A stretch of DNA of 33,755 bases from Sistotremastrum niveocremeum HHB9708. Taxonomy: Eukaryota; Basidiomycota; Agaricomycetes; Sistotremastrales; Sistotremastraceae. Shown here in pieces: positions 10,728 to 33,000 of the stretch. The notes beneath the pieces are model-generated. The model saw only the letters and a program-made list of their open reading frames with translations, did not search any database and was not told the DNA's origin. The stretch lies in contig KV419409.1 of the NCBI GenBank assembly GCA_001630475.1, forward strand, positions 683,883 to 717,637. Direction: 5' to 3'. The position numbers and the translations under genes are program-made. Every line of letters begins with the position of its first letter. Positions within the stretch are counted from its first letter, which is position 1.

Positions 10728-10815
10728 CTTCAGAAAAAAATAGACCAGCTAATTCAGCTCCTGAGCGCTCAGGAGGACTCAGGAGTCAAATTAGCTGGTC
10801 TATTTTTTTCTGAAG
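10728..10815. mobile_element. Miniature palindromic element P1 (88 bp)
   Basis: A 27-bp perfect inverted repeat begins CTTCAGAAAAAAATAGACC and ends with its complement. The interior contains the nested perfect palindrome CTCCTGAGCGCTCAGGAG. It is flanked by TT on each side, compatible with a 2-bp duplication. The whole unit should fold into one long hairpin or cruciform. It is the sister of P2 at 30630-30727 and has no coding capacity. It is followed by about 290 bp (10816-11109) without a supported gene. Confidence 0.75.
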
Positions 10816-11109
10816 TTTGCGTGTACGACGGAGTGCTGAGTGTCTCCCTGCGGCATTTGACTAGAATATTGAGTGCAGTTGCTAGCCTTCATTTATATGT
10901 ACGCTTTGCCTGCCTGCAGAACTTTCTTCATTGTACTCGTATTCGACTTTGGTGAGATCGGCGAGTTGGGATGTTCAAGACGCAGGACGTGACTTGATAT
11001 ACGGTACATTGTACATTGTAGAGACAAATAGACAGAGACAGCTAGATACGGCGTAGATATACAAGGGCAAAGTTCGAAACACCAAGAAATCAGTACGAGA
11101 AGAAGAAAT

Positions 11110-12807
11110 TCAATATTCAAAAATCTGAACGCGATCGTTATCATTGAAGAATAACCACCCTCTCTGCAAGTCGAATCCGACCAGCGCTTCACTGTATCTC
11201 CCATCCAGATGTTCGAGGGCCCAATCTTCGAATCGAGGCAGTTTCAATCGAATGAATCTTGTCTCCGGGTTATATTCGTCTCCAAGTCGAAGAACGTCGA
11301 CTTCCTGCTTTGCAGGATTCTTGGCCACATGAAGAGGGCCATTTGGCACTACTGTTGGGGGTCCGGTAAAATGGTCTCGAATCCTAGTCAAAGGCAGCGG
11401 CTTCGTGATAGGTACCGAACTAGTTTTGAAGTCGGAGAGCGATATCGCGAGATGCTCCAACCGATGATCAACTTCGGTCAATCGTTCGCTGGGCGGATAT
11501 TGTATGATATCCAGGATAGAGTCTCTTCCCGATGGACGGATACTTATCAAATGCCGCCTTTCGTTCTCAATGTCGTCAGCATCAAAGTCAAAGTCAAAGG
11601 GTACCTCATCCCTGAGACTGGATTCTTCTTCGATAGACTGTTCAGGGATCGAAAGGGAAATCTCCTCTATCCTGAAGTTATATGTGGGAAACTGAGATTC
11701 TTCGAGCTGGACCGTCGGGACGATGTCGACGTTGAAGCTGGTCCCGCTATTATCTGCGGGAACCATAGGCGGCATAACGACGGGAACGTCGACGGAGAGA
11801 AGCCAGTGTCCGGTGCTTCCTCTAATAATGTTGCTAGTCACATAGTCAACGATGACCGTTGCTTTGTGGGGATGGAAGTGAAGGCTGAATATTTCAATCT
11901 ATTACCGGTTAAACGAGTACCACAGATTTCAGACAAAGAGAAAAGCGTACATGATCTGAAGAGACCGGGAGTGAGAATACCAGCGCTGTACGTTTCTTCC
12001 AATCACTGACAATGATGTCATTGCGAGAAAGAAAAGCAACAAGATCGCCTTGGAGCTTAACGAATTGAATGTAAAAATCCGATCCGGTGAATGTGATTTG
12101 GGTCTGGGAACTTCCAAACGCATCTTCGGTCAAGGAATACTTGTTAACGGTGATCGTTTGGGTGATATGGAAGTTGTGCATATGGTAATTGGAGCATTGG
12201 AGCGCAATAAAGATCTCATTACCTGAGTCGGAAATCTCGCACGAAGAGCTGACGATGTTGGGGTAGGTCTTTTCTGCCCGAGCGCCCGTCAGCAAGTTGG
12301 CGAAATGTACTCCGCGGCGGGAGATGAAGATTGCATGACGCTCGGTGTAGCATAGACTGATAAGACGATCTCGATTATGGAAGGGTCCATCCGGCTCAAC
12401 GAAGGCTTCCCTATATTTAACTTCTCGCCTATTCCGAGGAGCGGGAGCGTGGTTCAAAGTATGCCCCGCAAGTCGTCGGGACAGCGCTATTGCTTGGACA
12501 GCTCGAGCGAACAACTCTTCGCCTGTGAGTGTTTCTGCAGAGGACTTGCCAAATGGGAGAGGGATAATCCGGAAGTTCAGAGTATTGATGAAAGCAGTTT
12601 TGTTCTCCAAGATGATTCTTCGGAAATTGGTACAAGTCTAGCCATTTGATGTCGTCGAAAATCGTTGCAAATCAAAGACTGAGGGCGTCGAGAAGAGAGG
12701 TGACTCACTTGAGACATCGCAAGAATATCCTGCACACATAGATGCTCCGCAATCGACAGGAAGACATCTTCTCCTATCCTTGCAAGATTTAGCGCCAGAG
12801 CATATAG
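11110..12807 (-). CDS. F-box-type protein, 5' end lost at a mobile-element edge
   Basis: Exons are 12807-12709 (5' incomplete), 12637-11951 and 11898-11110. The introns are 71 bp (GTGAGT...GCTAG) and 52 bp (GTACGC...AATAG with a TTTAAC-type branch). About 520 residues are visible. The first 45 form an F-box (IGEDVFLSIAEHLCVQDIL, then MSQTCTNFR). A long region without a recognised domain follows, probably beta-rich. Near the middle of the last exon is an acidic stretch (FDFDFDADDIENE), and the protein ends DNDRVQIFEY. The family's expected role is substrate recruitment for an SCF ubiquitin ligase; the substrate is unknown. No in-frame ATG precedes the F-box: the frame meets a stop at 12808-12810, about 2 bases from the inverted-repeat element. 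The gene is likely decapitated, though a few-codon upstream exon cannot be excluded. Confidence 0.75.
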
Positions 12808-12812
12808 CTAAA

Positions 12813-15671
12813 TATGTATACAAGTTCATGGCCGAGGGGTTGAGAACGTGTAGGTACTTTATCTACATGGACATAAAATGAATATATTTATTATTATTGC
12901 GGACATGTAGATAAACTTATCTACATGAAATTCGGAAAAATATTGAATATATTTGCGATTTATGTAGCTCCTGAACGGCTGGCCCGTTTGGGCTGGTTCT
13001 TGGCACGTTCTGATCAGGGAAAGAAGCAGACCCTGACCAGACCCTGCCAAGGGACCCTGAGCCAAACAAATACAAACATCAGGGTCCTGGGAGACCCCAG
13101 GCACCATTTTTTGATGCCGTCGCAGCCGTGACAGTGACAGGGTCTGCTTCTGAACAAACAAACAACCACAAACATTCCAAAAATGGAAAAAGACCTACCG
13201 GGGGTTATTTTGCCCTGCGATCGCAATGGTGAGGGTCTCAGGGTCCAGTGCCAAACATGTACAAACATTTGGACCCTGGGGCCCACCAGGCACCATTTTT
13301 TGCCCTCTTTTCAATGGTGGGGTCCATTTTGGGCGATTCTCAGGGTCTGGGTCCACCTGTCCCCAAAATGGGGTAAAAGGGGTCAATTCTGGTAGCCCCT
13401 GATCAGGGCTTTCCAGGGCTGGGTATATGGGCTCAAATNNNNNNNNNNNNNNNNNNNNNNNNNNNNNNNNNNNNNNNNNNNNNNNNNNNNNNNNNNNNNN
13501 NNNNNNNNNNNNNNNNNNNNNNNNNNNNNNNNNNNNNNNNNNNNNNNNNNNNNNNNNNNNNNNNNNNNNNNNNNNNNNNNNNNNNNNNNNNNNNNNNNNN
13601 NNNNNNNNNNNNNNNNNNNNNNNNNNNNNNNNNNNNNNNNNNNNNNNNNNNNNNNNNNNNNNNNNNNNNNNNNNNNNNNNNNNNNNNNNNNNNNNNNNNN
13701 NNNNNNNNNNNNNNNNNNNNNNNNNNNNNNNNNNNNNNNNNNNNNNNNNNNNNNNNNNNNNNNNNNNNNNNNNNNNNNNNNNNNNNNNNNNNNNNNNNNN
13801 NNNNNNNNNNNNNNNNNNNNNNNNNNNNNNNNNNNNNNNNNNNNNNNNNNNNNNNNNNNNNNNNNNNNNNNNNNNNNNNNNNNNNNNNNNNNNNNNNNNN
13901 NNNNNNNNNNNNNNNNNNNNNNNNNNNNNNNNNNNNNNNNNNNNNNNNNNNNNNNNNNNNNNNNNNNNNNNNNNNNNNNNNNNNNNNNNNNNNNNNNNNN
14001 NNNNNNNNNNNNNNNNNNNNNNNNNNNNNNNNNNNNNNNNNNNNNNNNNNNNNNNNNNNNNNNNNNNNNNNNNNNNNNNNNNNNNNNNNNNNNNNNNNNN
14101 NNNNNNNNNNNNNCAACTCTCTGTTGGGATCTGGTCATTTTGAAGCACAATGTGAAAGATTTCCAAAGTTCCAAAATACCCCAGAATATGAAATGTGCCA
14201 TTTTTTGAGCAGAGTTCAAATCTAGTTACAGAATTTGAATAGCTGCTCTGGTTCCTGAGATAGAGGCTGTTCTTTGCCAGGATATCCAATATTGTTTGCC
14301 CTATAGAGAGCCAGGCAGTGGACCAAATGTGTTCATATTCTGTCAGTGTGTTATGCACATATATTCCAACCCACTGACAGCCAGTGAGGTCATTTCCATG
14401 TTATCTCATGTCCGTATTAAGGTATTGAAATTCAGAAGTAATTCTCAAATACAGGAGGAACCAGAGAAGCTATTGAGCTGATTTTGATTTGTAAAATCAT
14501 GAACTTGTGTCTAGTACCCACATACTAGGTACCATGAATTATGCATCAGTTCCTGTGGCTGCAGAGCTGTAATACTGGTTCAAACCAGCAGTATTTCCAT
14601 TCCAGGAGACCATAGGGCAGGTGAAGTGACTTCCAGCCTTGATTATATGACAATACTAGTATAATAAACATTCCCAGGAGGTCAGGAGCACCAATATACC
14701 CCTGGTTGCTGTAGGAATGAGCATATATGGCTGTATAGCATCAGCACAAGAGAGGGTCTAGTTCAAGTGATTGCCAGGGTATATACTAGTGGGACAGTCA
14801 TGTAGAGAAGGCCATATCCTATTATGGTGGCCCTGAATGCCCCATACACCCTGGATATGGCTACAGCAGCAATTTCAGGAGTGGGCAGCCTTAGTACCCA
14901 GGGTCTGGGCAAGTAAAACAGGGGTATATTGGGTCAAATGGGCCAAACATACCCCAACAGTTCTGGGACAGCCCTGAAGTGCTGTGAATAGCAGGGATGG
15001 GCCAGAATTGGGCAGCTGGGGTGACCAGGTAGCATATCACCTAATTTGGCCTGATATGCTCACCATTGGATAGCCCTGACTGAGAGCTTCCAGAATTGAC
15101 CCCTTTTACCCCATTTGGGGGCCCGATGAACCTGGACCCTGAGAATTACCTAAAATGGGCAGCACCATTGAAAAGAGCACAAAATTTGGTGCCTGGTGGG
15201 TCCTGGGGTCCAAATGTTTGGTATTGTTTGGTTCTGGACCCTGAGACCCTCACCATTGCGTTCCCAGCGCAAAATAACCCCTGGTGGGTCTTTTTCCTGC
15301 TTTGTTTGTATCTGTTTGTTCAGAAGCGCACCCTGTGACCGTCACGGTTGAAACGGCGTCGAAAAATGGTGCCTGGGGTCTCCTGGGACCCTGATGTTTG
15401 CACTTGTTTGGCTCAGGGTCTCTTGGCAGGGTCTGGTCAGGGTCTGCTTCTTTCCCTGATCACAACGTGACAAGAATCAGCCCAAACGGAGCAGCCGTTA
15501 CTGAGCTACGTCAATCCCAAGAAATTCCCCATTATATTCAATATTTTTCCGAATTTTCATGTACTTAACAATATCTACATGAAACCAATATTATTAAATA
15601 AATGAATAAAATATGCGGCCATGAACTTGTCTACATGTTCTACACCTCGTGGCCACAAACTTGTATACATA
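12813..15671. mobile_element. Long-inverted-repeat element (about 2.9 kb) or inverted repeat pair
   Basis: The left arm (about 12813-13438) and the complement of the right arm (about 15030-15671) align over more than 600 bp with moderate divergence. Both start TATGTATACAAGTT, then GGCC, share the CGGAAAAATATTGAATATA block, then repeated AGGGTCC / ACCCTGACCAGACCCTGCC motifs. The arms run into the assembly gap on the left, so their full length is unknown. The central part (14114-15030) has no frame longer than about 60 codons. A TA flanks both ends if the termini are drawn at TGTATACAAG. It may be a foldback-type or non-autonomous TIR element, or two copies of one repeat in inverted orientation. 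Confidence 0.65.
13439..14113. other. Assembly gap (675 N)
   Basis: This unresolved run lies inside the long-inverted-repeat element, just where its left arm should continue. The inverted arms are a likely cause of the assembly failure. Any protein spanning it is an artefact. Confidence 0.99.
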
Positions 15672-16012
15672 TATAGGCTTTAGCATTGGGCTACCTATGA
15701 GATAGCCTGGACCCTTCAACACTTGAAGTGAGGATGAGTAGGACGTCTGTTAGGTGGACATTGAGAGCGGCATCAGTCAGTCCTGCGCACTCGAGGCCCC
15801 CAATCGATGACGTGCAGGCTCGGCCGAAGTCCCGTCGGAGATCGGAAATTTCCCAATTGGGCGTCTGTCCTTTGCAGAATTGCCAGAGACTCAAAAAGGA
15901 ATGGGGTTGTCTGTTCCAGACACTGACTATTGCAAGATGACCTCTACGACGGGAGTCTGTCTGATTGAAGGCGTTCGGTCTTGCTATCCACTCGGTTTCA
16001 GCAGTTCTGGTC
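15672..16012. other. Intergenic stretch upstream of the F-box/LRR-like gene
   Basis: No gene is supported. A long minus-strand frame here overlaps the start and first intron of the plus-strand gene at 16013 and is best read as its antisense shadow. No convincing TATA box was seen for the downstream gene. Confidence 0.4.
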
Positions 16013-17003
16013 ATGTCATATCTGTCGCTCTCTCCCGCGCTTCCCCACGACGTCCAAGTCATGATTGTTGAATCCGCTGCCCGTGATGGAAGACAGTATT
16101 GTTTGAAACTAATTGTTGTCTCTAGGAATTTCGCCGCATGGTAAGTCAATTGCATTATAATCAAGTGTCGTAGTCTGCTAAGTCACTCTCATCGCTAGGG
16201 TGCGCCCTATCCTATACGAGTCCGTCAGAATCTCCGGATATATCTCCATTGTCTCCTTCGCTCAGCGCTCTCTCTTTTTATCGCCAAACGTCAATCCTTC
16301 CCTCTGTCCTACCGATTTATCTCGGTTTTCACTTGTGAAACACCTGTTCCTAGACACCTGCTTTGATTCCACGTTCGACCTCAACATCTTGAATGCGTGT
16401 CCGAGCTTGCGAGCTCTAGCCATTCAAGGATTCAGTCTCAGAGAGCGCTCCTTCACGATGAATAACGGCTGTTGGAGCACTAGGCAGATTGCTTGTCGGC
16501 CATCCCATGTCACCCTATTCAACACCAATTGCGCGATCTTCCAAAAATTCAGACGACCAGCACCATCGATTCTCAATGCGTGCACGCATCTCTCTATTGA
16601 ACACACCACTATCGACTTATCGTGCATCACGTACCTCATTGGGCTGGTTCCCACTGTGACCCATCTTGCCCTCCTCTACTCCTCTCGCCGTATGGAAGCC
16701 GTTGTACACGTACCTGCTATGTGTGCAGCTAATCCTCGGCTAACACTCATTCTTTTTCTTCTGTTTGCCCGCTCCGAAACCAAAGGGAGTCGGAACGTGA
16801 GGGGTGGGGCAATGGGAAGGCCCTATGGGCGCCATCGATTTGAAGAGGGGGACCCTCGTGTGGCCGTCGTGGAAATGGACTCCGAGATATGCGAGGTTGC
16901 GGATCAGTGGAAGGAGATGGCCACAAGAGATCTCGATATCTGGAAACTTGCTGAAGAGCGATTGAGAGATATGCGAATGATGTCTTCAGACTTCAGCGCC
17001 TGA
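16013..17003 (+). CDS. F-box/LRR-like protein, intact
   Basis: Two exons, 16013-16140 and 16199-17003, encode 310 residues. The 58-bp intron (GTAAGT...GCTAG) splits the tryptophan codon of NFAAWVRPILYESVR. The first 50 residues (LPHDVQVMIVESAARDG ... VVSRNFAAWVRPILY) match the layout of the F-box-like start of many Agaricomycete proteins: Leu-Pro, a short helical core, then 'xVRPxLYExVxI'. The middle contains leucine-rich, repeat-like segments (SLVKHLFLDTCFDSTFDL, LNACPSLRALAIQGFSLRE, THLALL). The C-terminus is charged and helical (QWKEMATRDLDIWKLAEERL). The likely role is a substrate adaptor for SCF ubiquitin ligase; the substrate is unknown. The start is the first ATG compatible with the F-box frame. 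No damage is seen. Confidence 0.82.
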
Positions 17004-17957
17004 GGGATTCCGAAGTTCAGTAGCAGTGTCCGTAGGAGCATTTCGCGACGCGTGACAATCTATTCTCGGACCGTGTGGATCCTCAGCGCATTTATCGACA
17101 TTGCTTCAATATATGACACACTGATATGAAAGTATTTTGAGCGTTCACTCCCAGTGCTTATTTTGAGGAATCTCCTGCCCTGACGTCACAATCTGGTGTC
17201 CGATCCATATCTTTCCCGGACAAAGGGTACAATGAAAGGCCTGAAGTCGCACTCAGGCTTCTCCTGGACGATGCTGCACCTCACGTTTTATGTTAATGCC
17301 AAGTGCTCGCATTGCTGGAGTGTTCAAATGACATCACGCTGCGTCTCTCGGGCTGGCGAGCATCGCGAGTCAGGAGCCAAGGCTTCGATTTACGAAGGAA
17401 AATGCAAGTGAGGTAGTCGACAACAAGGGGGGAGAGCAATGCACGGAGACTCGAGACACGAAGTAGAGCTCAGGTCTCATTAATGAGCGTTCATTCCGAG
17501 TCGAGAGTCCGGATTACGGACAGGGCATACTTAAATTAAACGCTCAGCTGGCTAGCGCTTTCACGTCGATGAACAGCCGATCAATGCAATGACATCCGGA
17601 ATCAAGGGTAAACAGACTTTATTGCTACTACAACATAAAGGCTACACTAGGAAGAGAGGAAAGGATGGTTGAGTCACAGAAATGAATGAGGAAGTAAGCA
17701 AGAGCGCTAGGGAAGAGAAACTGTTAAAGGACAAGCATTAAAGAATGGCGATGAAGGTCAAAATTAAACAGGGATACTTCTGTAGAAACACGACAAAGGT
17801 AGAGATGGCGGAGAAAAAGTAAGGAAGGGAATGGAGTGCGGCGAGGCTAATTAGATCGGTGAAGGAATGCTAGGGTGGACAAAGGATTGGCGTGACACGA
17901 CGGAGAGAACGATTTAAGGAGAGATCATTGCGTATCAAACGCGGTAGAGGCGAGGTC
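17004..17957. other. Gene-poor stretch
   Basis: I see no supportable gene. About 17600-17930 is purine-rich on the plus strand and lies just beyond the 3' end of the minus-strand gene that follows, so part may be its 3' untranslated region and terminator. Confidence 0.4.
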
Positions 17958-18607
17958 TTAAACAAAATGGATAGAGTGAAGCTCTAGAGCGAATACGGGT
18001 TGCCACCGGTTGAGCGCGACATGCTCCAACTTCAGCAACCGTAGTTTACGGAAGTCGAGCTCATATGCATTCGCTTGAGGGTGAGGACGAAAGTGGCGTA
18101 TCCAGGGAGTCTTGGCGTCAACTTCTGCAACGGACTGTAGATGATATGTCATATTAGACTGGGAGAGCACTAGAAAGGCATTGAAGACGCACCATGAATG
18201 CCTGTCTGACGTGTTTCCATATGAAACGGAGTGCCTCCGAGTTCAGCTCGACGGTGTCGGGGAATGATGCGTTGGGTTCGGACGTGCCAGGGAACTGCAT
18301 CAAGCGTGAATTCAGGGAGTAGAGAGAGAGGTGTGGCACTTACACCGACATAAATGAGTTGCCCCTGCAGACGGCTTACGTCCTCGATCGAAGGACACAG
18401 CTGAGCCAACGCGGTACGGGAACTATGGTAGTCGACAAAGGGTACACCGGGAGACCCATCCCGAGCATAGAAGCGGACGGGTGGCATACGTTGAGCGACA
18501 AAGGATGGCACGCGTTCGAGCGTCTTGGGCCACAGCCGACGAAGCTGACCGTCGAAAGTAAGGAGTTGGTGGTTGACGAGCCCTTCCAGAGGGTTCTTAG
18601 CGTTCAT
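17958..18607 (-). CDS. Hypothetical 180-residue protein, three exons
   Basis: Exons are 18607-18344, 18294-18193 and 18134-17958. The introns are 49 bp (GTAAGT...TGCAG) and 58 bp (GTGCGT...TACAG), both between codons. The start is the ATG at 18605-18607, 50 bp downstream of a TATATAAG box. The protein reads smoothly across the joins (LIYVG-FPGTSEPNA, RQAFM-SVAEVDAK). No signal peptide, membrane segment or recognised domain is visible. The middle is acidic and helical, and the C-terminus is basic to hydrophobic (LRLLKLEHVALNRWQ). The family is not recognised. No break is seen, so it is probably an expressed orphan gene. Confidence 0.7.
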
Positions 18608-18656
18608 GACAAGGAGCGACGAGGGATGAGAGGAAAGGTGGGTCCACTCACGGAGT

Positions 18657-19274: not shown

Positions 19275-21951
19275 TCAGAATCTACCGGCTCGATGGGAGA
19301 AGAATACAACACACATTAAATATTGAGGAGGGAGCTCGAAGGGATCAGCCTCTTTGATGAACAAGTCGTATCGTTGTTCCGGAGTTAAGGCCTGGAGCCA
19401 TATAACGTCATAGTAGTTCTCAGGGAGGCCGGGAACGGGCAAGGCTTGGGAGATACGATCGCATTGAAGGCGCAAACGAGTACGATTGCCTTGAGTCTTT
19501 CCGCCGTTTCGTGAAGAAGTTTCTCGGCGTTCGTAGTGGAGAGCGTCCAGCATCCGGAGCAGATCAGTCAACCATTGCGGTCGATCAATGCGCAAACGAA
19601 TCCGGTATGTTTCGTGGTGTGAGTGCGTTGTGTAACGGTGTGGACCTCCATCGGATTCATCGCTGCTCATGCCGTTTGTCCCGAGGCGACCGAGAATCTT
19701 GATCATGGGTTTCAGGCCGTGCTCCTTTTGCGCGATGTGCATCCGTCTCCAATACAGCTGAGGGAAACGTTACCAAGGGGGCAAGACAAGAGAGATAGTT
19801 GCGTGCTTACACCGATACGACGCGAATTCGCGCGTGCTTTCGCTTTGAGAAGCGCAAGCTGAGCATCACTCAGCTGTTTCTCCAAGAGGAGCCAGGTTTT
19901 GCGACGGCCTCGCAGGTGCTCCCTGGCCCGAGTTTGGACAAGGGCAAAGGTGTAGGATTCTTCGGCGGCATATCGTTCGAGGAAAGCTTGGGTGAAGACT
20001 AGTGTTCCAAGGTCCAGTTGCCGTGACCGGTGGCAACCGGCAGTCGCGACCGGACCATGACCGGACCGCAGTTGCCGGTTGCCCAGGTTCTTGGAAAATC
20101 AGGCAACCGGCAACCGCAGTCATGACCGGTCATGACCGTGGTCGCAACCGAGGACCCTTAAGGGTCCCCAACCAGGGTACCCAGAGGGTATTTTGGGTCT
20201 CAAATGGGTGTTTATGGTGACATATCTGGTATATATTGGTCTCTATATGCATGTACCACATCATATGAGGTGTATATACAGTATATATAATATAATAATG
20301 ATTAAAATATTGACATAAGACCAGTTGTGACTGGAAAAACTGGCCATGACTGGTTGCGCAACCAGTCGCAGCCATGACCGGTCGCCGGACCGCAACCGCA
20401 GTCGCAGTTGCCAGTCATGCAAAATTATGGACGGCAACCGGACCGGCAGTTGCCAGTCGCACCCTCTGGGGGTCAAAAGTCCAGTCGTGACTGGACCTCA
20501 GAACACTAGTGAAGACGGTTGTGGCGATTTTATTCCAGGCCGATTTAGGTTTCCGATTGTAAGCGAAGAAGAACTCATTGCGGGTGGGACCGCTGTGTCT
20601 CTTATCGTCAAAGGCAGCAAGAACTTCGGCGGATGGAAGAGGGAAGTGAAGTGAGGTGGGGGCTGAATCGTCTTCGGCAGGTCGGTGTTCCATTGCTGCG
20701 AGGAATGTACGAATTCGTTTCTGAAAGGCGATCAGCTTAAATTGAATGAAGTGCACAAAGCCTGACCATCAGGAGCAAGATGTGACCAGATTTGTGTTTG
20801 GGACGCAACTTGATAGGCCGATCTACTCCATCTTCGTCCTGGTCGACGTAATGAGAACGTATCTTCATCTGATCCTTGAATTGATTCCCCAAACTGAGCA
20901 GCTTCGTATTCGTATCGGACAGAGCCTTGGTGTTGCGTCTCACAGCTGTATTCGTCCTTCGCGAAGATTTGACAAGCTCTGCGAGGAGCGCTTTCATGGA
21001 CACATTCTCCTGAAAAGGACGTCAGTAGCTGCAGGGGGAAAAGTTATAGCCATAAACACTCACCAGATCGTCTAGGTCGGCTTCGTCATCCGCATCGGAA
21101 TCAGTATCGGACGATCCAGATCGACTGTGGCCATCAGCACCATCGTCTTGATCCATAGCTTGATCGCGCTCGGTAGGCTGAGGTACATTATTGCGCGAGG
21201 TGTGTGGGTGCGCATTCGGGGATGGTGGCATAACTGAAGATGGGACGTGGGTTTCGGAGGGAGCGACATCAGCAGCGTTGGTTTGGGGAGCCCAATCTGG
21301 AGGAGCGAGATTCATGCTGTGTAGGTGATCGCGCCTGACATGGGCATCTGTCATGTTCTGCAGAGCGTGATTGCCTGACCCTAGAGGAATAGGGATGACA
21401 TACTATATCTTTGCCATTGGCCATGTTGCCGTCATTGACTGTGCCTTGTACATCTACGGCGTTGATGGATAGCCCGGTACCATGCAATATCTCTGCGCCA
21501 GAACTTGCCTCTGCGTCATTCGTTGGACCGAAGCCATTAATCAAGTCTGCGCGGCTCGCCTGAAACTGCTGAGTGAGAGGGAAAGTGACTCCATGACAGA
21601 TGACACACAACAGGAGTCGGCAGAGTTGCCTGAGGAGACACAACCTCAATAGCATCCATGCCTCCCAGATAGGAAGGGTCTATGACAAGGTCGGTATGAA
21701 CGCGTGACGTGGACACCTGAAGGGATCGTACCTGGTGTGGGTGGAACGAAGTTACTTCCATGAGATTGTACAGCATTTCTCGATGGACGACGTCGGTCAA
21801 CATCGTCTGTCGATTCTTCGACTCCACGAGAGGGTCTACCCGGGTATGGTTCGAAACGCAGGGCTTTTATAGTGCGCTCGTCGCGAGCTCTTTTGCGAGC
21901 GGCCAAATGGCGACGGGAGACCGTATGGTCTGAGTTGACAGAGGAATCCAT
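19275..21951 (-). pseudogene. Seven-exon unrecognised gene interrupted by one hAT-like element
   Basis: Exons are 21951-21732, 21679-21609, 21559-21404, 21357-21064, 21009-20767, 20720-20509 plus 19999-19811, and 19757-19275. Introns are 46-54 bp with GT and AG ends. With element D and one 8-bp duplication removed, all joins stay in frame and give 619 residues. Visible parts in order are a basic N-terminus (HLAARKRARDERT), a Ser/Asp-rich acidic stretch (RSGSSDTDSDADDEADLDDL), a helical region (NTKALSDTNTKLLSLGNQF), a Lys/Arg-rich helix (AREHLRGRRKTWLLLEKQL), and a C-terminal region with the signature LGTNGMSSDESD. I associate the GMSSDESD motif with an expanded family of uncharacterised proteins in mushroom genomes, from memory and not verified. 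The only visible lesion is the insertion. Confidence 0.78.
20000..20508 (+). mobile_element. hAT-like miniature element D (509 bp), diverged relative of family A
   Basis: The termini are TAGTGTTCCAAGGTCCAGT and (complement) TAGTGTTCTGAGGTCCAGT. The octamer GTGAAGAC flanks it at 19992-19999 and 20509-20516. It shares with A1 and A2 the length, the CAACCGG-rich ends, the central CCCTTAAGGGTCCCCA block and the AT-rich core, but is clearly more divergent. It has no coding capacity and lies in exon 6 of the surrounding gene. Confidence 0.93.
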
Positions 21952-23210: not shown

Positions 23211-23265
23211 TCGATGAGTTGAGCACAGACTGACGACGGTATGGGCGATTCATCCAAGATTAGCG

Positions 23266-23487: not shown

Positions 23488-25136
23488 ATGCCCCTCCAAC
23501 GATCGAAGCTGTATCGAAGAAGTCATTCCCGGCGGATCAACTGTGTTTCGATATCGAAGTGTTCGCGCTACGTCGCTACAGGTGCGCATGAGCTAGCAGT
23601 GTGGGACTTGCGAGATACCAAGAAAGCTGCTTGTGTGGTGCCGACGGGGGAGATCATTCTGTGTTTATCCTGGATAGAGTCCAATGCTCTGGGCTGGACC
23701 ATAGCTTGTGGTCTTCACAATGGTGTTTTGCTGACTTTGAGGTTCAGAGGGGTGAGTTCCGTGCATCGATACGAGTGAAGGTTGACTCGGAATAGGATTC
23801 TGTCGAAGTGACCGCATTTCAGCAGCCCGCGCACTCTTCTCCGATCACTGCTCTATCTGCGTACTTGAATAACGGGACCATCGTTACCGGAGGTCAGTCA
23901 GACGGTTGTGGATTGTGGGATCGTGCCGGTGAAGGTGATTGGGTTCTTGTAGCGAAGACGTGGATCTGAAATTGGAACAGAATGGTCAAAGAGAGCGGAC
24001 TTGTTGCCAGATAGCCGTAGGAAATACCCTCCCGTGGTCCAGATTCAAGCTCTGGGGGGTCAATCCTACCTCGCTATCCTGTTCAAAGACGGAGGGCTCT
24101 TGTGAGTTGATTCACCAATACTGTGCTGCGCGGGAGCTCATAGTGCTGAAGGTGTTTGTCAATGGAATCAGAAGAAGTCTTATGGGTGTCGAATGTTGAC
24201 ACCCCAACGTATGTGTCGATTTCGTTCGTGGTCGCTGAACAATTAACCTGGAGTCAGTGTGTCGACGGGATTGTCTGTCGGTACATATGGGCTTTCACTC
24301 ATTACGCTGAAACGCCGGGGCGAAATTCGATTTCACTCTACACCGGATGTAAGACAACAGGAGAGGTTCGAGATTTCAGGCACAGTTGTGCACAACGAAC
24401 GACTGGAGGGCCCAATGGCCTTTGTGTCCCCTGATTTTGTCGCAGTAGGATGTGGGGATACTGGAAATGCCGATATCTGGGATCTCAGCACGGGCAGGAT
24501 AGTGGAGCACTTGAATCATGAAGGTTAATACTAATTGATGGGTCCCGAATTCTTATGCCATTTGACATCTCAACAGGCGCTAGCATTCAGGCAATGACTG
24601 TGAGGCTATTCCTAAATGTTCATGACAATCCTCACCCAACGATTAAGAGCGCTTTTGACCCACATACCGGATTGGCATTGGTCGCGACAGTGGCCAACGA
24701 GAGCGGGGAAACCATCATCAGGGTGTGGGAGAGTATCCCGGACATGAGCGCTTGTCCGTTCTTCTCTCTTCGTAAGGGTTTCGCAATTTGACATGATCTC
24801 CACAGGGGACTACCTTGCGACGGCTGAAAATTCTGGATACATTCCCGTGAGTCACATCAAATGACCCAAGGACTCCGGGGTGACGGTTCATGCTTAGCGG
24901 GTCTCTCGACGAGAGCCCGAATCACGCAGTCGAGGATGCAATATCCACTACGCCTGGACCGTGAGTTTGAGATGGAATCTTGCATGTCTTACCTGATGAG
25001 GGTGTAGATTGCGGTTTTCACAGCACTTGGGTTATTCAGCTTGTGGATCTCGCGCGACGAGGCAGCCTCTTACGATGGGGCCTCGAGCGCTAATGTGGGG
25101 GGCTCCTATAGCCGTTTCGGTGCATTGTTCTATTGA
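23488..25136 (+). CDS. WD-repeat protein with C-terminal membrane segment
   Basis: Nine exons, 23488-23751, 23796-23934, 23981-24101, 24152-24208, 24258-24523, 24577-24771, 24806-24846, 24898-24960 and 25008-25136, keep one frame and give 424 residues. WD-type motifs include HSRRINCVSIS with ELAVWDLRDT, GTIVTGGQSDGCGLWDRAG, VGCGDTGNADIWDLSTG and TIIRVWESI, fitting a beta-propeller scaffold. After the propeller comes a basic stretch (RVSRREPESRSRGC) and then the hydrophobic segment IAVFTALGLFSLWIS, which should anchor the protein in a membrane with the propeller in the cytosol. Introns are 44-53 bp except the one at 24772-24805, which appears to be only 34 bp. The start ATG at 23488 begins MPLQRSKLYRRSHSRR. 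Exons 3-4 are the least certain joins. The partner is unknown. Confidence 0.75.
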
Positions 25137-25755
25137 CTATCATTAAATCCGCACCCAATCTGGAAATACGATTCTGCTTCATGGTGTCTGAACGTCAGTT
25201 ATAACGAAGAGCGTTCTTTCATCTCAGACCATTATTTCAATGTCGAGTGCGCAGTGTTACATGTCCTGCCCAAGTCTTTTCTCGCTTGTTAGAAGCGGAA
25301 AGAAGAGTCCGTCAATGTGTGAAGGTTGTGCGATACACATCTTATGACATAGGCAACTCTTTAGCTTTACGAATCTGAGGCTGCTTGTTGTTGGTATTGT
25401 TACGTTTGACTTTTGCATTTCGACGATCGCGAGATTACAGCACAGTTGGTCATCTATGTGGTTATCCTATAGCAGAGTTTTGCATTTTAACTCTCACGCG
25501 TTCGCATTTACGGTTGTTGCAAAGACTCTAAGTGGGAGGAATGAGACTATAGTTGAACGTCGAATATGGAGCGAACGAGACCTGTTGAGGAACGAGAAGG
25601 GGGACGAATCTTCGTGTTGTGTTCGGTATTTCACTCAATTTACGCTTGGATGCCAGCACTACATGATATTCAGAACGACTGAGCATGGACATCAAGATTC
25701 ATATAGCCAACGCTACAGTTATTCATGCATGTGAATATATTCAAATACAGTATAT
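25137..25755. other. Convergent 3' intergenic stretch
   Basis: No gene is supported between the two 3' ends of the WD-repeat gene and the minus-strand gene at 25756. It is moderately AT-rich and presumably contains both 3' untranslated regions. Confidence 0.45.
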
Positions 25756-26936
25756 TTACATCAGGCGCGCTTTTTCCAGCTCACGTTGATATTTCTTCTG
25801 CGTCTCCAGTTTGATCCAAGATGGACCGGTGGCGTCGTCTCTTATGTACAAGACATATTCTGGGATTAGAGGATGATGCGAGCCGAGGAATACTTCGAGC
25901 CATTGCGGCCCTTCCTGTCGAACCCATATAGTCTTGTCCGTTGCAGTGTACCGAAGTTCATAGACATCTCCGGCAGAGGCACTGTCAGCTGAGACCAACG
26001 GTCCAATGGCGGAGCGAACGTGGTCGGTAAGCAGGGTTGAGGCTGATTCGCGCCACAAAATCCAATGCGGGCCTTGGCGCGTAGTACGTGTGAGACGTGT
26101 TGGCGGTTGGCGGTAAGGATGGTCAGGATCTTGAATAACAGGGGAAGGATCGAAGGGGCTGAGGTGTCGCTGTGCGATTTCCGGGGACGAGGGAGCCAGC
26201 GAAGACTGTCTAGATTGCACAAATGCGGCATTGATGGCTTTCAGTCTGGAGTTTCGTTGAGCATGCTGAATGGTATGAAGGGAGAAGCTCACAAAGATCT
26301 GGCGGCAGCGCGATCAAGCTTCAATATAATTTGATGGCCATTCCGAAAAATGAGGCTGAGACGGATTGAGACGTCGAAAAACGGAAGAGATGGAAAGTGG
26401 CACCATTCAGTGGTATCAGAGTCATAATTCCAGTGCGCGGGCGTATCGGAGTCCACGAACTGTAAAGACACCTGTTCCCCCATGGCGTAGGAATGTCTTT
26501 CGGGTGTCTGGATGTGCCACGATGAGCTCGAAGAGGGAAAAAAATTAACAGCAAGCCGACGAACCTTCTGTCTCGTGGACTTGGACGATAATTTGATTTT
26601 GGCATTCGAAGTGGATGCGGACCTTTCTTGAGGCGATGGAAATGTTGCAAGAGTCGTCCGAGCTCGAATTTCGGATTGTAGGTCTGGCTGAGGACCCTCG
26701 CTTGCAGCCCTGGCAGGTGAAGATCGGGATGTGATCGCTATTTCCTTGCTAAGATGAGACCTGGAACTCTTTCATCAACATGCCATAATATCACTGCGGT
26801 TGGTTCGAACACTGGCTTACCTCTGAGATGAGTTATGGGGATCGTCGGCCTTCGGGAGGTCGGCCGCGGAGGCATTGAGCCTGAAGACCTGAACACCATC
26901 TGTAACGGGCTGAGAATGAACTCGTACAGGAGGCAT
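25756..26936 (-). CDS. Hypothetical 338-residue protein, four exons
   Basis: Exons are 26936-26821, 26737-26561, 26526-26293 and 26245-25756; total length and all junction phases agree. The introns are 83, 34 and 47 bp. The start at 26934-26936 gives MPPVRVHSQPVTDGVQVFRL. After the first join comes IPIFTCQGCKRGSSARPTIR, whose CxxC could be part of a small metal-binding site, although no second CxxC is visible. A beta-rich middle follows (VRIHFECQNQIIVQVHETEG; FVDSDTPAHWNYDSDTTEW), then a Pro-rich linker, then a C-terminal globular part (PHWILWRESA ... QEGPQWLEVFLGSHHP). The family is not recognised. It is divergent from the membrane-protein gene at 27181, with 244 bp between starts. The 34-bp intron at 26527-26560 is the weakest point of the model. 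Confidence 0.7.
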
Positions 26937-27180
26937 TGTATTCAGGAAATGTCGAGGGTAAGGATCCCGATAGCGGATTCCTCATTTAAAGGAGGGATGC
27001 ACTGGTCCCGCTTTTGCTCAGATTGCCGCTTACGGTCGTCTACTGGGAATTATATAGTCGAATCCCTTTTCGGTAAGCTCCGATCCGGCTACCGCAAACG
27101 CGCATACGGGGTGATGCTGCGTCTTATCATGAAAGTCTGTGTCCTGTGTTCCCTCGAGCTCCCCTTGGTCTAAATCAGTG

Positions 27181-27732
27181 ATGTCAACAGAATCTTCTCA
27201 ATGGTCTCCCGTCGAAAGCAAGTTCAGAAAAGGTGATCGTATGTTCCGCAGGCCGCCACCGCTAACAGGTGGATCGGATGGCCGTGAGTCTCCAGATGGT
27301 CATCATTATGGCTGCGTCGTAATCCGCTATCCACAGGAAATGTCAAACCAGTGAATCCGGACGAATATGGAGATTCCGTCCACGAATCCGGGCACGGTTT
27401 CAAGGAGCAGCTCACTAGGGTGAGATAATCATGCACCTTGTCAATGATGTTGCTTATAGATCGGCTTACAGGCGTTCTGGGGAGTTGACGGTGTTCAAGA
27501 GAGAGATTATGGGCAACGTTCATTAGACCCTATTGTCATCCAAGTCTCGCCATCCTTGAAAATGGTGTGGCTGTTTGTGAGCTGTGTCCTCATATCCGTG
27601 GGTGCGACGTTAGCATTGGGATTGGCGCTGGTATGGTATCATTCCGGGGTGTGCTCTGTAGGGGAACCGGAGACGCCGAATCGCTGGTCGGTACGTGACA
27701 ATGTCATCCATGGTGTGCGCGAGCTCGAATAA
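27181..27732 (+). CDS. Small single-pass membrane protein, 157 residues
   Basis: Exons are 27181-27298, 27337-27419 and 27460-27732. The introns are short (38 bp GTCATC...CACAG and 40 bp GTGAGA...TATAG). The N-terminal 95 residues are polar and proline/glycine-rich (SSQWSPVESKF; RRPPPLTGGSDGRESPDG), as for a disordered tail. One clear membrane segment near residues 97-121 (MVWLFVSCVLISVGATLALG, then LALVWY) is followed by about 35 polar residues ending NVIHGVRELE. There is no signal peptide, so it is probably a signal-anchor or tail-type protein. The last exon contains no early ATG and is easily missed by frame scanning. The family is not recognised. Confidence 0.65.
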
Positions 27733-28125
27733 TGTATTCTGCTTAGTTAGCCGATGACCTGTAGCATTGAGTCGTAGCTCCGTTTGATACCATTAGTTCT
27801 GGATACTGCTCTTGGGCCGCGCTGTCGATGCTACGTGTGTAAGATGCTTGACGTGTTGGAAGATCATTCGAGTATGGGCCTGCCCCGAGGTTGAAATAAC
27901 ATTTTAACAGCATTTTGGTATATTAGCAGCCAGTGCGAGGGACGAAAAGTGTATCATGTTCGCAAAGACTACTGACAATTGGGCAAGTGAACGTGGTGAA
28001 TGTCGAGTAATATTGAGTCCGCAGATTGATAGCGCACAATCAGAGACATATTAGGGCTTTTTGTGAAAGTAGTACAAATTTCTGGTGATACGCTAAAGAG
28101 AGAGAGCGTGACATCCGACGAAGAC
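27733..28125. other. Intergenic stretch without a supported gene
   Basis: No convincing coding signal on either strand. It separates the 3' ends of the convergent neighbours. Confidence 0.4.
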
Positions 28126-28882
28126 TCAGTCGTCTGCCTCGTCGATGGTCGGAAGGCAAGAGGCATTGGACGACTGTCCAAGCGATGCATTAAGGTATCG
28201 TGATGGTCTTGCGGTTTTCTCTTTGTATATTTCCTATGCACCAAGCAATGTGTAGGGCTCATTACCTCTCACATATCGAAACTCACCATCTTCAGAAGGA
28301 GCATATGAATGAGAGAGTCGCGAAGGAGTATCCATTTAGAGGGATGAGACAAGAAGTCGGACCCTTCATATGGTGGATGACGAAGGAGGTGATCCTTAGC
28401 CTGCTTCAAAAACTTCATAGGAGTCGGAACTTGATGCCACATAACCAGAACGGGATGATTTGTGGGCCTTGAAGAGCGCTGAGATGACAGAATCATGTAT
28501 GTGGACGAGCTTACATTGTCTTGAGTTCAGATTTCAGCTGGTCACCCACGTTGTCGAGGTGCAGCTTGAGCAACAGTTGAAAACGCAGGCTGGGATCAGA
28601 GATGGAGTGAACTTGAGCCAGTCGTCGTTGCATGCGATTGGCTATCGGGGGACGGGAGCATGATGACAGGGCTAGCATCGCTCGGTGAGCACTGAAAGAC
28701 TGGTATAGGTCGGTGTAATGGGCAGTTCAGCTGGGTTCCAATGTTCCTAATGCGGCCACATCAGCGATAAGACGCATGAGGTAGACACGGCGGATGCCGG
28801 CGGGTAAGGGCGTTCGGCTTGTGCGAACGCGAACAAAGGAAAGAGGAGACAATGCAGAATCTTGCAGGATAGCGGAGTTCAT
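28126..28882 (-). pseudogene. Unrecognised, probably decayed multi-exon gene
   Basis: Protein-like pieces occur in order but do not join cleanly. From ATG 28882: TPLPAGIRRVYLMRLIADVA, then LGTLEPS and an in-frame TGA near 28738. The same frame continues with TAHYTDLYQSFSAHRAMLAL and ISDPSLRFQLLLKLHLDN up to a GTAAGC donor. A piece with PVLVMWHQVPTPMKFLKQAK and HPSKWILLRDSLIHMLLLKM follows, then a good intron (GTGAGT...GCATAG) and a last exon EIYKEKTARPSRYLN ending DEADD with a stop at 28126-28128. The in-frame stop and one phase mismatch suggest decay; an intron I failed to place could also explain them. The family is unknown. Confidence 0.4.
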
Positions 28883-28897
28883 ACCCTGATTGCACAG

Positions 28898-28905
28898 TAT
28901 ATAAG
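28898..28905 (+). promoter_or_regulatory. TATA box of the gene at 28978-29739
   Basis: TATATAAG lies 73-80 bp upstream of the ATG at 28978. A leader of about 45 bases, rich in CCTCAACCACCACC-type pyrimidine sequence, would follow, as is common before fungal start codons. Confidence 0.55.
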
Positions 28906-28977
28906 CTCGTCCTTGATACTAGATTCTTCTGGTCCTCAACCACCACCTTCCTATCGTCTTTACTAGGCGTCCTCCAA

Positions 28978-29739
28978 ATGGCCCCCGAACCCAGTCAACC
29001 TACCCCTTATATGCCAGAGAAGTTTACCCATGCCCTCGTTCTCCTTCAAGAGAAAGCTCTCACCCAGAAGTTCAATATGGAGCTCCTCACTGACGCAGAC
29101 GGACCAACCAAAGTCACGGCGAATATCTATACAGTCTTTCTGAAACAGAAAGAATTCATGTTGAATCGTTTCGCGAACAGGTGAGTGATGTTATTGTATA
29201 CATGAATGTATGCCGACCGAGTTGCGATTGCATGATAGTGCGACTTGGCCTGCGGACAAGATGACGGGAATCCCAGGCGCGGTCCAAGGGCCCGCGCTGC
29301 AGCTAAACGTGATCAGGATACTGGGCAGTCGAGCAAGCTTCGAAAACTTCCACCAGAATCCCCTTAACTCTATGTACGTCACCGCATCGCTTGTGGCCCA
29401 TGCCATCTGGTATCTGTCCGATACTCGACTGGATACCCTCAGGCCGTACGCGAGACTTATGCGGGATGCGATTCGTGCCCACCTGCACGCTCGCCTGGTA
29501 CGCCATTTCCTCCCCTTGAACAACTCGATACTCATACAAGGAACGTTTAGAGAGAGCTATATGACACCGGAAGTGATCACGAAGGTGACGGTGGTTATTC
29601 CTCGAGCGAGAACTCGTTCGAGGAAGAGGATAAACAGGACAGCAAGTGGTTTCTTGAACGCATCATGTTGGACGCACCTCCGGTCGAGGGTGATTACGAA
29701 GTTGACGAAGACGATGAAATCGTTGAGGAATGCGATTAG
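28978..29739 (+). CDS. Hypothetical 216-residue protein with acidic tail
   Basis: Exons are 28978-29180, 29239-29497 and 29551-29739. The introns are 58 bp (GTGAGT...GATAG) and 53 bp (GTACGC...TTTAG), and all phases agree. The start MAPEPSQPTPYMPEKFTHAL follows a TATA box and a pyrimidine-rich leader. Residues 1-155 look globular and mainly helical (ALQLNVIRILGSRASF; LNSMYVTASLVAHAIWYLSD; LRPYARLMRDAIRAHLHARL). The last 60 residues are strongly acidic (SSSENSFEEEDKQDSKW; DYEVDEDDEIVEECD). No domain is recognised. It ends 290 bp from the 3' end of the convergent transposase gene, so it might be a passenger of that element, but no element boundary was found to show this. Confidence 0.72.
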
Positions 29740-30029
29740 GCTATCAGTATCAACTCAAATGTAGAGAATCATCCTATGTTCGCCGTATGTACAATGCTAC
29801 CAACAAGAAGAACGCTACTCCTAGACAGGATTGTGCTTTCCGCATTCAGGACAAAGCAACGGACATTCGGGCTACTGCTCCGAGCGCTAAGTACTCTTAT
29901 GACGTAAGTGCCGACGATCCGTCGTTGAATCCGCGTCCCGGTCAAACCACGAGCGCTGCCACAGTTGCTCTCCTTTGGATGTTAGAGAGGCAGAGATTTG
30001 TGAGTTATACCGTTCTAGCGAGAGATGAG

Positions 30030-33000
30030 TTAGACTGCTGTTTGGAAAAAACAGAATCGACAAACTCTGTCCAACGGGAGGATCCATCTCAATTGTTGGG
30101 GATTCGGTGCTGCGGGCTGGTGGGGACAAGACGTTTGATGATAGCACTTTTCGTACATCTTTTGACGATGAGCACAGGTGCACTCATACTCAGCGAGTGC
30201 GTGAGCGCAATGACAGATGACGTCATCTACAAGTACGACCGTGTCCTCAGCCTCGAAGTCGTCATGGTACAGGGACCCTGCAAAGGTACCAAATTCACGA
30301 TACGGATCGTAGCAGCGCTCGTGTTCCAAAAGAGGGCGAAATGTCGAAATAATAGCGTACTTCTGGCAGGTCTTGGATGCGGGGGATTCGGGTGTCTTCG
30401 GCAGTAAGAGTGTGTGAGTGAATAAGAGCCTGATCACACCCACTAGATTCCGATTGCCCTTTCGAAAGAGGACTGTGGAATCACGAGTGGAGCTTTGTTG
30501 GATGTGGAGCCTGACGCCGTGATATTCGACAGAGTCATGAAGCATGACTGCGTTCTCGACGAAAGTGCCTGAGGGACCAACACGAGGATTGGCTATGAGG
30601 TCAAAGTTTGCGGGATATTGAGCGTTCAGCTTCAGAAAAAATTAGACCTCCTATTTTGACTCTTGAGTACTCCAGAGTACTCCAGAGCGCTCAGGAGTTG
30701 AAATAGGAGGTCTAATTTTTTCTGAAGAGGTGCTTGATGAAGAGCGAAAGATGTTCTTCTTTCAAGGAATCCGGTAGCATCGACTCGTTTTCAACCGTAG
30801 CCGAGATAGGTTCTTCGGAAGCATTTGATGGGTCGCTGAGCAAGTCGCTGAGGAGAGTACCGCGGGCCTTCGGTTCCAAGAAGCGCTGGAACCGCATGCG
30901 AATTTTATCGAATTGTTTGGGCAATTCTTTCGTGACGCGATCGAATATGGCCTTCAAATTACTTTGCATGCAGAAATACCGGACATAGGTCCCCGCAAGC
31001 TCCTCTGGAACCAGGATTCAGTGAGCTGTTGCGACGGGGGGTCGAGACGAGAGTACTCACCAATTTTGGAATTAGTGTTAATATCGTGCATCATCCCATT
31101 GTAGCGCTCAAATGCGTATGCACGCCATGAGTGCACAGGTCCAAATGCACGAAGAAAATCGGCAAAATGCGTCGCCCCATGTTGATAAATGCTGAAAACT
31201 TTGTCAAGAAAGAGTTCTTGGTGACCTGTCAAATATTCCCGGATATGGAAGTCGTAAGCGGCGATGGTGGCGGCGTTGATCTGACGCAGGTTCGCTAATT
31301 CCCCAGCCGCGACAAGGTGCATAAGGTTTCTCAAGATGGCTTGATAGCGCGCGGTCTTCGTCCGCCATTGTTTGATAAGACTGAACACCAGGGTTATGGT
31401 GACGAAATTCCGCCATTCATCTGCCTTCAAGGTACCCGCACCAGCTGATCCTGCCTGATGCGGTGCCCGGCCCACCCAAGACGGGGTAATAATCTGTTCA
31501 TTGTCCTTCCAGATTTCGGGGAGTGTCTTCTTGCCTAAGACGACGGAATGGACCACTTCCGCTCTCTGCGTGACCGACGGATTAGTAGGGACTCCGTATC
31601 CGTAACTGAATGTGTCTTACCCAAGTCATCAAGCCTTTGAGTAACACAGTCTCGTCGTCGTCCGTGATCTTTATTTGCTTCATTTCGCATAGTGCTTTCA
31701 AGCGTTCCTGCCCCAGCGCCCTGAGCTCTTTTCGAGAAGTCCCAGGGAACAACAAGAGTTGCTCGTCCTCCCAGAGAATTTGTTGAGGTGATGGTTGAGG
31801 CTGGGGCTGGGCCTCGGGAGGCGAGGTCGATGTGGTCTCGACTGACGCATCGACTTCACCTGAATCGTCAGCGATGCCAGCACGTCTCTCGGCAGCACGG
31901 TAGCGCTGTGAACCGGGATATTAGCAGTTGAAATTCAGGGATGGAACATGCTCGCCTCTTTTTCAATACGTTTGATTATGTCAGAAAGTTTGCCTTCGGA
32001 TGAGACACCCATATGTGTGCAAATGGCACGACAGCGTTCTATCCCCAGCTTCTGTAATAAACGCCGAGGCTTTGGATGATTGATAGCGTATGACTCCTGC
32101 GTCATCTGGCCGACAGGTGGGCGGGGTCTCACAGCTCGCTGCACGATATCCACGTCAGTCAGGCAACTTTTATTCCTATTCTTTACTTACATGCGCATGC
32201 AACGCGTCAACATATTGCTCTTTTGTAGGCTTTCCGGAAACAGATACATGGACTTCAGCACATAACGCTGCGAGAACGTCCTTCCTTGATTTCGATAGGT
32301 GCGATCTCAGATCAAATCCTTCATCCCATGGCCATTCAAACGCCCATCTCGCCCTGAGAACCAGTCGGGAGAATGCATTGTCAGCCTTGCTTAATCGAAC
32401 TTCTCCAGCATTCTCAGAAGGTGCCTACGGGATCGTTATTATAACATTTAAACGAAGGAATTCCGCTAAAGCGCTCACCGAAACCAATGACGTCACCAAA
32501 GGCGCTTTCGCACGGCCTCCCCAGGGAAGATTTCGTTCCGCGCACAAGCTACGCAACACAGGAAGCGAGAGCTTCGAGAGCACAGTCACGTTCTTGTTAC
32601 GAATAGCATCGGCGTACTCTGCCCTTTTCTTGGGATCTCGAACCTTTGGCGGTCGGGGAGTGTTGCCATCACCGTCAGGAGAGGTCGCGTTCATGCCCAG
32701 AACTTTACGACAATGTCTCTCGTAGAGCGTAGTGGTAAGATGCATCGGATCCAGCACCTTGAAAGCCATGGGATCCCAATAAGGTAATCGTAGGAGCTCG
32801 GACCATCTAGCGCCATCTTCCTCTTCAATCCGATTTTGCTCATCCTCCGTCTCCGCGCTTTTCCAAGCGCTCGCAGACTCTCGATGCACTGAGGCAAATC
32901 TGGGAGGGAAAGCTGAGTCTAGTTCTCCGAGCTCTGAGAGGGTGATCCAACAATATGGGCATGGGAAAGTGGCACCGTGATGACGAAAGCCCGCAACATC

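What the first reader, a model, noticed from the sequence alone, without database searches (positions are those of the whole stretch)
10728..30727. Two miniature palindromes whose stems differ by compensated changes
P1 (10728-10815) and P2 (30630-30727) share the terminus CTTCAGAAAAAA, TAGACC, and an interior GAGCGCTCAGGAG. Within each copy the outer 27 bp of both arms are perfectly complementary. Between copies the arms differ at positions 13, 20, 21 and 25, and each difference appears in both arms of the same copy; all four are A/T or G/C transversions. Independent point mutation would not give this. Either the hairpin is under structural selection, or one arm is regularly copied from the other through a snap-back or hairpin intermediate. 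I know of no named family of this description, which is not proof that none exists.
Basis: partly seen in the sequence, partly recalled or inferred. Interest (0 to 1): 0.78.

Follow-up and report, generated by a model that had tools for sequence, protein, structure and literature searches.

The report
Palindromic Plavaka MITEs with covarying arms
The two hairpin-shaped repeats belong to a family of tiny fungal-type jumping elements, and the two halves of each element change together between lineages, most simply because one half is now and then recopied from the other.

Summary
P1 (88 bp) and P2 (98 bp) have perfect 27-bp outer arms that differ between copies at positions 13, 20, 21 and 25, each time in both arms. 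They belong to a family with at least 67 palindromic places in the source genome (34.7 Mb, fungal-like). Copies carry a 2-bp target-site duplication of variable sequence (52 of 59 insertions; 3-5 of 59 at control offsets), and six empty sites show clean insertion. A 6.5-kb element with similar ends and a TA duplication encodes a Plavaka transposase (PF18759). So these are miniature inverted-repeat elements (MITEs) of the Plavaka group, not an unknown class. Across 57 copies 11 of 1539 outer-arm cells are mismatched (shuffled mean 139, minimum 90). By parsimony at least 13 matched column changes separate the arm types, mostly transversions. Half-changed copies exist at positions 5, 13 and 27. 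I favour occasional within-element arm copying by hairpin template switching, known elsewhere, followed by amplification of the perfect copies. New arm changes in the youngest burst are all one-sided, so copying looks rarer than point mutation. Structural selection and separate palindrome births are not excluded.

The parts
10726..10727 (.). left 2-bp target-site duplication of P1 (TT)
   Evidence: family-wide test
10728..10754 (+). P1 left arm, outer 27 bp (subfamily A)
10762..10781 (.). P1 centre: two 10-bp units, TGAGCGCTCA and GGAGGACTCA
10789..10815 (-). P1 right arm, outer 27 bp, perfect complement of the left
10816..10817 (.). right 2-bp target-site duplication of P1 (TT)
30628..30629 (.). 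left 2-bp target-site duplication of P2 (AG)
   Evidence: family-wide test
30630..30656 (+). P2 left arm, outer 27 bp (subfamily B)
30664..30693 (.). P2 centre: three 10-bp units with cores AGTACT, AGTACT, AGCGCT
30701..30727 (-). P2 right arm, outer 27 bp, perfect complement of the left
30728..30729 (.). right 2-bp target-site duplication of P2 (AG)

Best explanation
P1 and P2 are non-autonomous miniature elements (MITEs) moved by the transposase of Plavaka DNA transposons, whose ends and target duplication they resemble. Each element is almost wholly palindromic: two 34-bp arms around one to three 10-bp units. The arms covary because, now and then, one arm is rewritten from the other inside the same element, when a nascent strand snaps back (or switches template) at the hairpin during replication or gap repair. 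A one-arm mutation is thereby erased or doubled. Elements made perfect again can then amplify and found subfamilies. Shown: family, target duplications, empty sites, ends shared with a Plavaka-coding element, covariation, half-changed copies. Inferred: mobilisation by that transposase, template switching as the copying step, its direction and its timing.
For: Family: 67 places with exact GACC/GGTC arms; arm types A-E. Target duplication: 52 of 59 distinct insertions have the same 2 bp on both sides, 3-5 of 59 at five control offsets. Empty sites: of eight loci with a match running through the junction, I aligned six, and none has extra or missing bases at the junction; L047 is 60 of 60 identical. 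Partner: C8:707362-713876, ends CTTCAGAAAAAATTAG.. and CTTCAGAAAAAATTAC.., TA on both sides; two ORF pieces match PF18759 at 1.3e-17 and 9.9e-73. P2 shares the first 16 and 15 bases with these two ends; P1 shares 12 before a mismatch at 13, but shares 20 with a second Plavaka-linked end, L099. Covariation: 11 of 1539 outer-arm cells mismatched over 57 copies, 2000 shuffles mean 139, minimum 90; among 13 unique arm pairs 8 mismatches against mean 42.9, minimum 18. On a D-centred star the arm types differ by 15 matched columns, 12 of them transversions; my own parsimony count on the same arms is at least 13. Half-changed copies: position 5 is A/A, A/T and T/T in type D on otherwise nearly identical elements; position 27 is C/C, C/T and T/T in type C; position 13 is T/A in two B copies. 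No copy joins arms of types A-D as judged at positions 19-30, 0 of the 56 length-intact copies, which exchange between copies should produce. Mechanism known elsewhere: PMC8604942 (Introduction read), PMC8794818 (passages).
Against: No copying event was observed directly. In the D burst (21 copies with T/T at position 5) the new arm changes seen are one-sided (positions 28, 29, 30 in L076, L085, L067; none matched). Half-changed elements transposed as such (L003 and L010; L060 and L061; all four with target duplications). Seven duplicated copies of one insertion near contig ends are identical, and none of 59 insertions shows two versions of its element among the copies fetched. No unambiguous centre inversion, the strongest mark of template switching, was found: P2 and the commonest B type differ in which way round the centre lies relative to the arm marks at 28-29, but decay of TCGA to TTGA or TCAA explains that too. 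Positions 2 and 5 lie in the end that the transposase must read, so selection for matched ends could explain those. The L099 end already has the A-type states at 13 and 20, so those two need not have arisen in a palindrome. The A at position 13 in L060/L061 could be a small exchange with an A-type end. The shuffles ignore relatedness. The copies counted must have intact outer ends, which favours young copies and undercounts mismatches at positions 1-10. Type E rests on one intact copy (L106); L107 and the truncated L110 carry the same arm.
Confidence: 0.55

Rival explanations
1. Structural selection: the hairpin (in DNA, for transposition, or in RNA) is needed, so a mutation in one arm survives only if the other arm mutates to match.
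For: Strong hairpins; pairing is strict in the outer arm while the inner arm and centre vary; the largest burst is a perfect-armed type (21 of 57 copies).
Against: 12 of 15 arm-type changes are transversions, which have no wobble-paired intermediate; mismatched elements nevertheless transposed (L003, L010, L060, L061, with target duplications); the C8 Plavaka element's own ends agree over only 15 bp.
Confidence: 0.2
2. Separate births: each subfamily is an independent palindrome made from one end of a different Plavaka parent, so the arms differ between subfamilies but match within them from birth.
For: A Plavaka-linked end (C54:17772, L099) matches type A at 24 of 27 bases, 20 in a row, with A at both 13 and 20; type E has the CATCA..TGATG ends published for PlavakaB.
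Against: The arm types share arm length and 10-bp centre units; of 57 places with a 3-unit array all 50 listed lie in these MITEs (some truncated or damaged), though the reversed control pattern also has 12 places, so the array alone is not specific; matched changes at 5 and 27 occur within a type on otherwise nearly identical elements.
Confidence: 0.18
3. Exchange between copies: two half-changed copies aligned in opposite orientation recombine in the centre and give one A/A and one T/T product.
For: Many near-identical copies; arms are interchangeable because the element is a palindrome; all four combinations of position-5 arm state and one centre state occur in D; the A at position 13 in two B copies (L060, L061) could be a short exchanged end.
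Against: No joining of arm types A-D at positions 19-30, 0 of 56 length-intact copies; target duplications intact in 52 of 59, whereas crossovers between sites would pair unlike flanks (conversion without crossover would not).
Confidence: 0.07

Closest known systems
Plavaka DNA transposons (CMCT clade; PlavakaA and PlavakaB, PMC12730594, passages seen)
   Same: The 6.5-kb partner encodes a PF18759 transposase; 2-bp, sometimes 3-bp, target duplication; type E ends CATCA..TGATG as given for PlavakaB.
   Different: P1, P2 and types A-D end CTTC..GAAG, which the passages I saw do not list; no coding sequence; wholly palindromic.
MITEs, especially fully palindromic or hairpin MITEs (general features recalled)
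   Same: Under 100 bp, inverted ends and target duplication like those of a coding element in the same genome, dozens of copies, burst amplification.
   Different: Arms beyond the transposon end change together between arm types; centre of one to three 10-bp, mostly palindromic units.
Quasi-palindrome correction by template switching (PMC8604942, Introduction; PMC8794818, passages)
   Same: One arm is rewritten from the other, giving matched multi-base changes in a hairpin.
   Different: In the parts seen it is described for genes, RNA genes and short inverted repeats, not for a mobile family; here it would act between transposition bursts.
Bacterial REP/REPIN palindromes (recalled; titles and abstracts listed)
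   Same: Short mobile palindromes with many copies.
   Different: Different transposase type (recalled); not tested further.

Membership tests
MITE | short, terminal inverted repeats | tested here: met
   78-98 bp, inverted arms
MITE | target-site duplication and empty sites | tested here: met
   52 of 59 with 2 bp; six empty sites
MITE | ends and duplication length shared with a coding transposon in the same genome | tested here: met
   C8:707362-713876: P2 16 and 15 shared end bases, P1 12 before a mismatch; one such element delimited at both ends
MITE | mobilised in trans by that transposase | not testable with these tools
   needs a transposition assay
PlavakaB | 2- or 3-bp target duplication | tested here: met
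   52 of 59 with 2 bp; of the other seven, L022 (GCT) and L087 (GGC) have 3 bp and five have neither; definition from PMC12730594 passages
PlavakaB | termini CATCA..TGATG | tested here: not met
   P1, P2 and types A-D have CTTCA or CTTCT with GAAG at the other end; only type E (C20:79838-79935) has CATCA..TGATG
PlavakaA | termini TGT..ACA | tested here: not met
Plavaka (group) | partner transposase of the Plavaka family | tested here: met
   PF18759 on two ORF pieces, 1.3e-17 and 9.9e-73; 38 stretches match in the genome, 37 over the cut-off
Plavaka A or B lineage | position of the transposase in the Plavaka tree | not tested
   no tree was built
Template-switch homogenisation | matched multi-site changes in both arms with half-changed copies | tested here: met
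Template-switch homogenisation | inversion of the loop relative to the flanking arms | tested here: inconclusive
   B types differ in centre orientation relative to marks at 28-29, also explained by CpG decay; no insertion with two versions among the copies fetched

The most novel reading that the evidence does not exclude
Arm copying is part of the element's own life cycle: the palindrome passes through a hairpin or snap-back intermediate during excision, gap repair or reintegration, so that new founders are regularly born with one arm copied into both, and the spacer length shifts in 10-bp steps by the same process.
Probability: 0.1. Interest if true: 0.8.

Novelty: new member of a known kind. 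Interest (0 to 1): 0.45.

Why it matters
The family is a compact natural record of how inverted repeats stay perfect: dozens of insertions of related palindromes, with perfect and half-changed states side by side. It could be used to measure how often one arm overwrites the other relative to point mutation, and whether perfect palindromes transpose better. It also adds an end type (CTTC..GAAG) and a miniature family to the Plavaka transposons, for which the literature searches I ran showed no described MITE.

Tried and rejected
Unknown element class: rejected after the target duplications and the Plavaka partner were found. Chance or recurrent independent point mutation: rejected by shuffles. 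CpG decay as the whole explanation: it fits the inner columns 27-29 (TCGA to TTGA or TCAA) and the unit cores (GCGC, GTGC, GTAC), but not the A/T and G/C changes among the arm types at 2, 5, 13, 18-21, 24 and 25. Parents carrying the palindromic arms: the exact 19-mer hits that do not belong to complete palindromes are truncated or damaged copies (L095, L096, L097, L109), one copy cut by masked bases (L098), and one Plavaka-linked end, L099; L099's right end could not be read because that stretch is masked, and a DNA search with its first 238 bases found only itself and one fragment. Other collections: one single-arm match in viral contigs, not followed, none for the two-armed pattern in prokaryote genomes; no related fungal genome was available. 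One search found nothing because my gap range was too short; one search repeated it with a longer one and found one copy.

Rows dropped: copies without both outer ends intact by my pattern (L095, L096, L097, L098, L107, L109, L110, L111) are in no arm count, and two copies with small indels (L045, L063) were left out of the 57. Copies with identical 25-bp flanks were counted once; 59 distinct insertions remain of the fetched copies.

Literature: a Plavaka MITE was looked for (8 of 9 papers listed; 5 of 1,304 listed; whole words Plavaka and MITE, 0 papers; word beginnings, 2 papers; passages name both terms in classification lists and describe no Plavaka MITE). The one paper holding Plavaka and 'miniature inverted' was looked at in passages: the latter is in a reference, and its non-autonomous families are hAT and TcMar. 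Arm homogenisation or template switching in MITEs: capped listings, none seen in titles or abstract openings; one search's fungal hit concerned cDNA synthesis. Other listings gave nothing used. Most subscription papers are not in that library.

I lowered the main reading from 0.6 to 0.55 and raised separate births from 0.15 to 0.18 for that.
Full report
Observation. Both palindromes are exactly where stated and the arm comparison is correct. The shared terminus occurs four times in the window, at the two ends of P1 and P2, against a shuffle mean of 0.03. Single-strand folding gives -35.4 and -34 kcal/mol, z -12.2 and -11.9.

Family. The window lies in a 34.7-Mb assembly of 111 contigs, fungal-like by its transposases (tnp2 and Plavaka; inference). 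The exact 19-mer terminus has 84 places, 0 for the reversed control. Patterns for both ends give 35 places with CTTCAG..CTGAAG and a further class with CTTCTG..CAGAAG or mixed ends (24 forward, 28 reverse matches); 67 places have exact GACC/GGTC arms whatever their outer end. Sizes are 78, 88 or 98 bp, plus two copies with small indels. The centre is one, two or three 10-bp units, mostly with the core AGYRCT (AGGACT in P1's second unit). Arm types: A (88 bp, P1; one copy 78 bp), B (98 bp, P2; one copy 88 bp), C, D, and E, whose arms begin CATCAGAAAAAATTAGGGATCC.

Insertion. I extracted 59 distinct insertions with intact ends and 25 bp of flank on each side, collapsing copies with identical flanks. 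In 52 of 59 the two bases before and after the element are identical; at offsets 2, 4, 6, 8 and 10 the counts are 5, 3, 4, 4, 4. The duplicated pair varies (13 different pairs among the 51 of 58 counted). Of the other seven, L022 and L087 have 3 bp instead and five have no such duplication. Eight loci have a match running through the joined flanks elsewhere among the fetched loci or in the window; I aligned six, and taking out the element plus one duplicate leaves no extra or missing bases at the junction. One is identical over 60 bases, so that insertion is probably recent. Of the sites compared, three are in the window's own repeats, near 6.3-6.4, 15.0 and 20.3-20.4 kb.

Partner. A stretch of C8, 707362-713876, begins CTTCAGAAAAAATTAGG and ends with the complement of CTTCAGAAAAAATTAC, with TA on both sides. 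It has ATAGC/GCTAT repeats inside both ends and a type C MITE nested within. Two of its ORF pieces match the Plavaka transposase model (PF18759); another matches DUF6532 (PF20149). The genome has 38 stretches matching PF18759, 37 over the cut-off; these are exons, not whole elements. A second Plavaka-linked end is C54:17772 (L099), with a transposase match 3.5 kb inward; its other end is masked. PMC12730594 (passages) reports 2-bp duplications for PlavakaA and 2-3 bp for PlavakaB, with TGT..ACA and CATCA..TGATG ends. Type E has the PlavakaB ends; A to D have CTTC..GAAG. Filing P1 and P2 as PlavakaB therefore fails on the end motif, but the Plavaka group assignment holds through the partner.

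Covariation. Over 57 elements of length 78, 88 or 98, 11 of 1539 cells (27 columns) are mismatched between arms, 8 of them in columns 11-27, where the patterns that brought in most copies did not force identity. Dealing the right arms out anew gives a mean of 139 and a minimum of 90 in 2000 shuffles. Counting each arm pair once (13 pairs) gives 8 against a mean of 42.9 and a minimum of 18. These shuffles ignore relatedness; the count of arm types is the fairer measure. With D as centre, A differs at 13, 20, 21; B at 21, 25; C at 24; part of C at 27; most of D at 5; E at 2, 17, 18, 19, 21, 24, 25: 15 matched changes, 12 of them transversions. Joining B and E (shared 21 and 25) gives 13, the least I can find by parsimony on these arms. 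Seven one-arm changes remain in the outer 27: at 5, 13, 17, 20, 22 (two kinds) and 27. Three of these, at 5, 13 and 27, are half-way states of changes seen matched in other copies. In D the states A/A, A/T, T/T at position 5 stand on an otherwise nearly identical 98-bp element, and T/T makes up 21 of the 57 copies. The direction of these changes is not known.

Reading. One-arm mutation followed by copying of one arm into the other explains matched transversions, the half-changed states, the lack of copies joining arms of two types (0 of 56 length-intact copies, judged at positions 19-30) and the freedom of the centre. Template switching at imperfect inverted repeats is documented (PMC8604942, Introduction read; PMC8794818, passages). 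Against a frequent process: the D burst shows only one-sided new arm changes, half-changed copies have transposed, and seven copies of one insertion near contig ends are identical. So copying is slow compared with a burst and is seen between arm types. Selection on founders (perfect palindromes transpose better) may act together with it. Against that rival as a full account, all 50 listed of the 57 places with three 10-bp units fall in these MITEs (reversed control 12 places), and matched changes occur within types C and D.

Verdict. A real, well-marked MITE family of the Plavaka group and a good natural system for measuring arm homogenisation, but neither a new class of element nor a new mechanism on present evidence.

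Noticed in passing
window 4009-6475: A roughly 2.5-kb structure with 491-bp inverted arms, 95% complementary, and inner inverted arms (4589-5092) full of GCAGGTACCTGC-like palindromic units; related pieces at 17-48 and 19993-20517.
   Followed up: no
window 12808-15676: Nested inverted repeats (arms 12953-13172/15301-15520 and 13178-13438/15044-15304, 81-86% complementary) around a masked stretch; the interior cannot be read.
   Followed up: no
window 32425-33519 (-): ORF of 364 aa with a tnp2 transposase match (PF02992, 1.7e-14), a different family from Plavaka.
   Followed up: no
L066 430-557, L101 212-339, L103 178-305: A second miniature family of 128 bp with the same CTTCAGAAAAAA end but a non-palindromic interior of AATAGC-like repeats.
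   Followed up: partly
C11:943473, C18:685014, C42:2042, C64:100696, C75:2042, C93:26752, C105:11330: One half-changed type D insertion present in seven identical copies, about 1.7-2.1 kb from contig ends, apparently in a duplicated chromosome-end repeat.
   Followed up: partly
C8:707965-708062: A type C MITE sits inside the 6.5-kb Plavaka element that shares its ends.
   Followed up: no
L100 (C5:1207028): Another end, CTTCAGAAAAAAATAGACA, followed by GGTACCTGC-type palindromic units, perhaps a further Plavaka-like element.
   Followed up: no
C12 and C27 (L011, L047, L048): Nearly identical segments on two contigs, one with an extra MITE insertion: a recent duplication or two haplotypes in the assembly.
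   Followed up: partly
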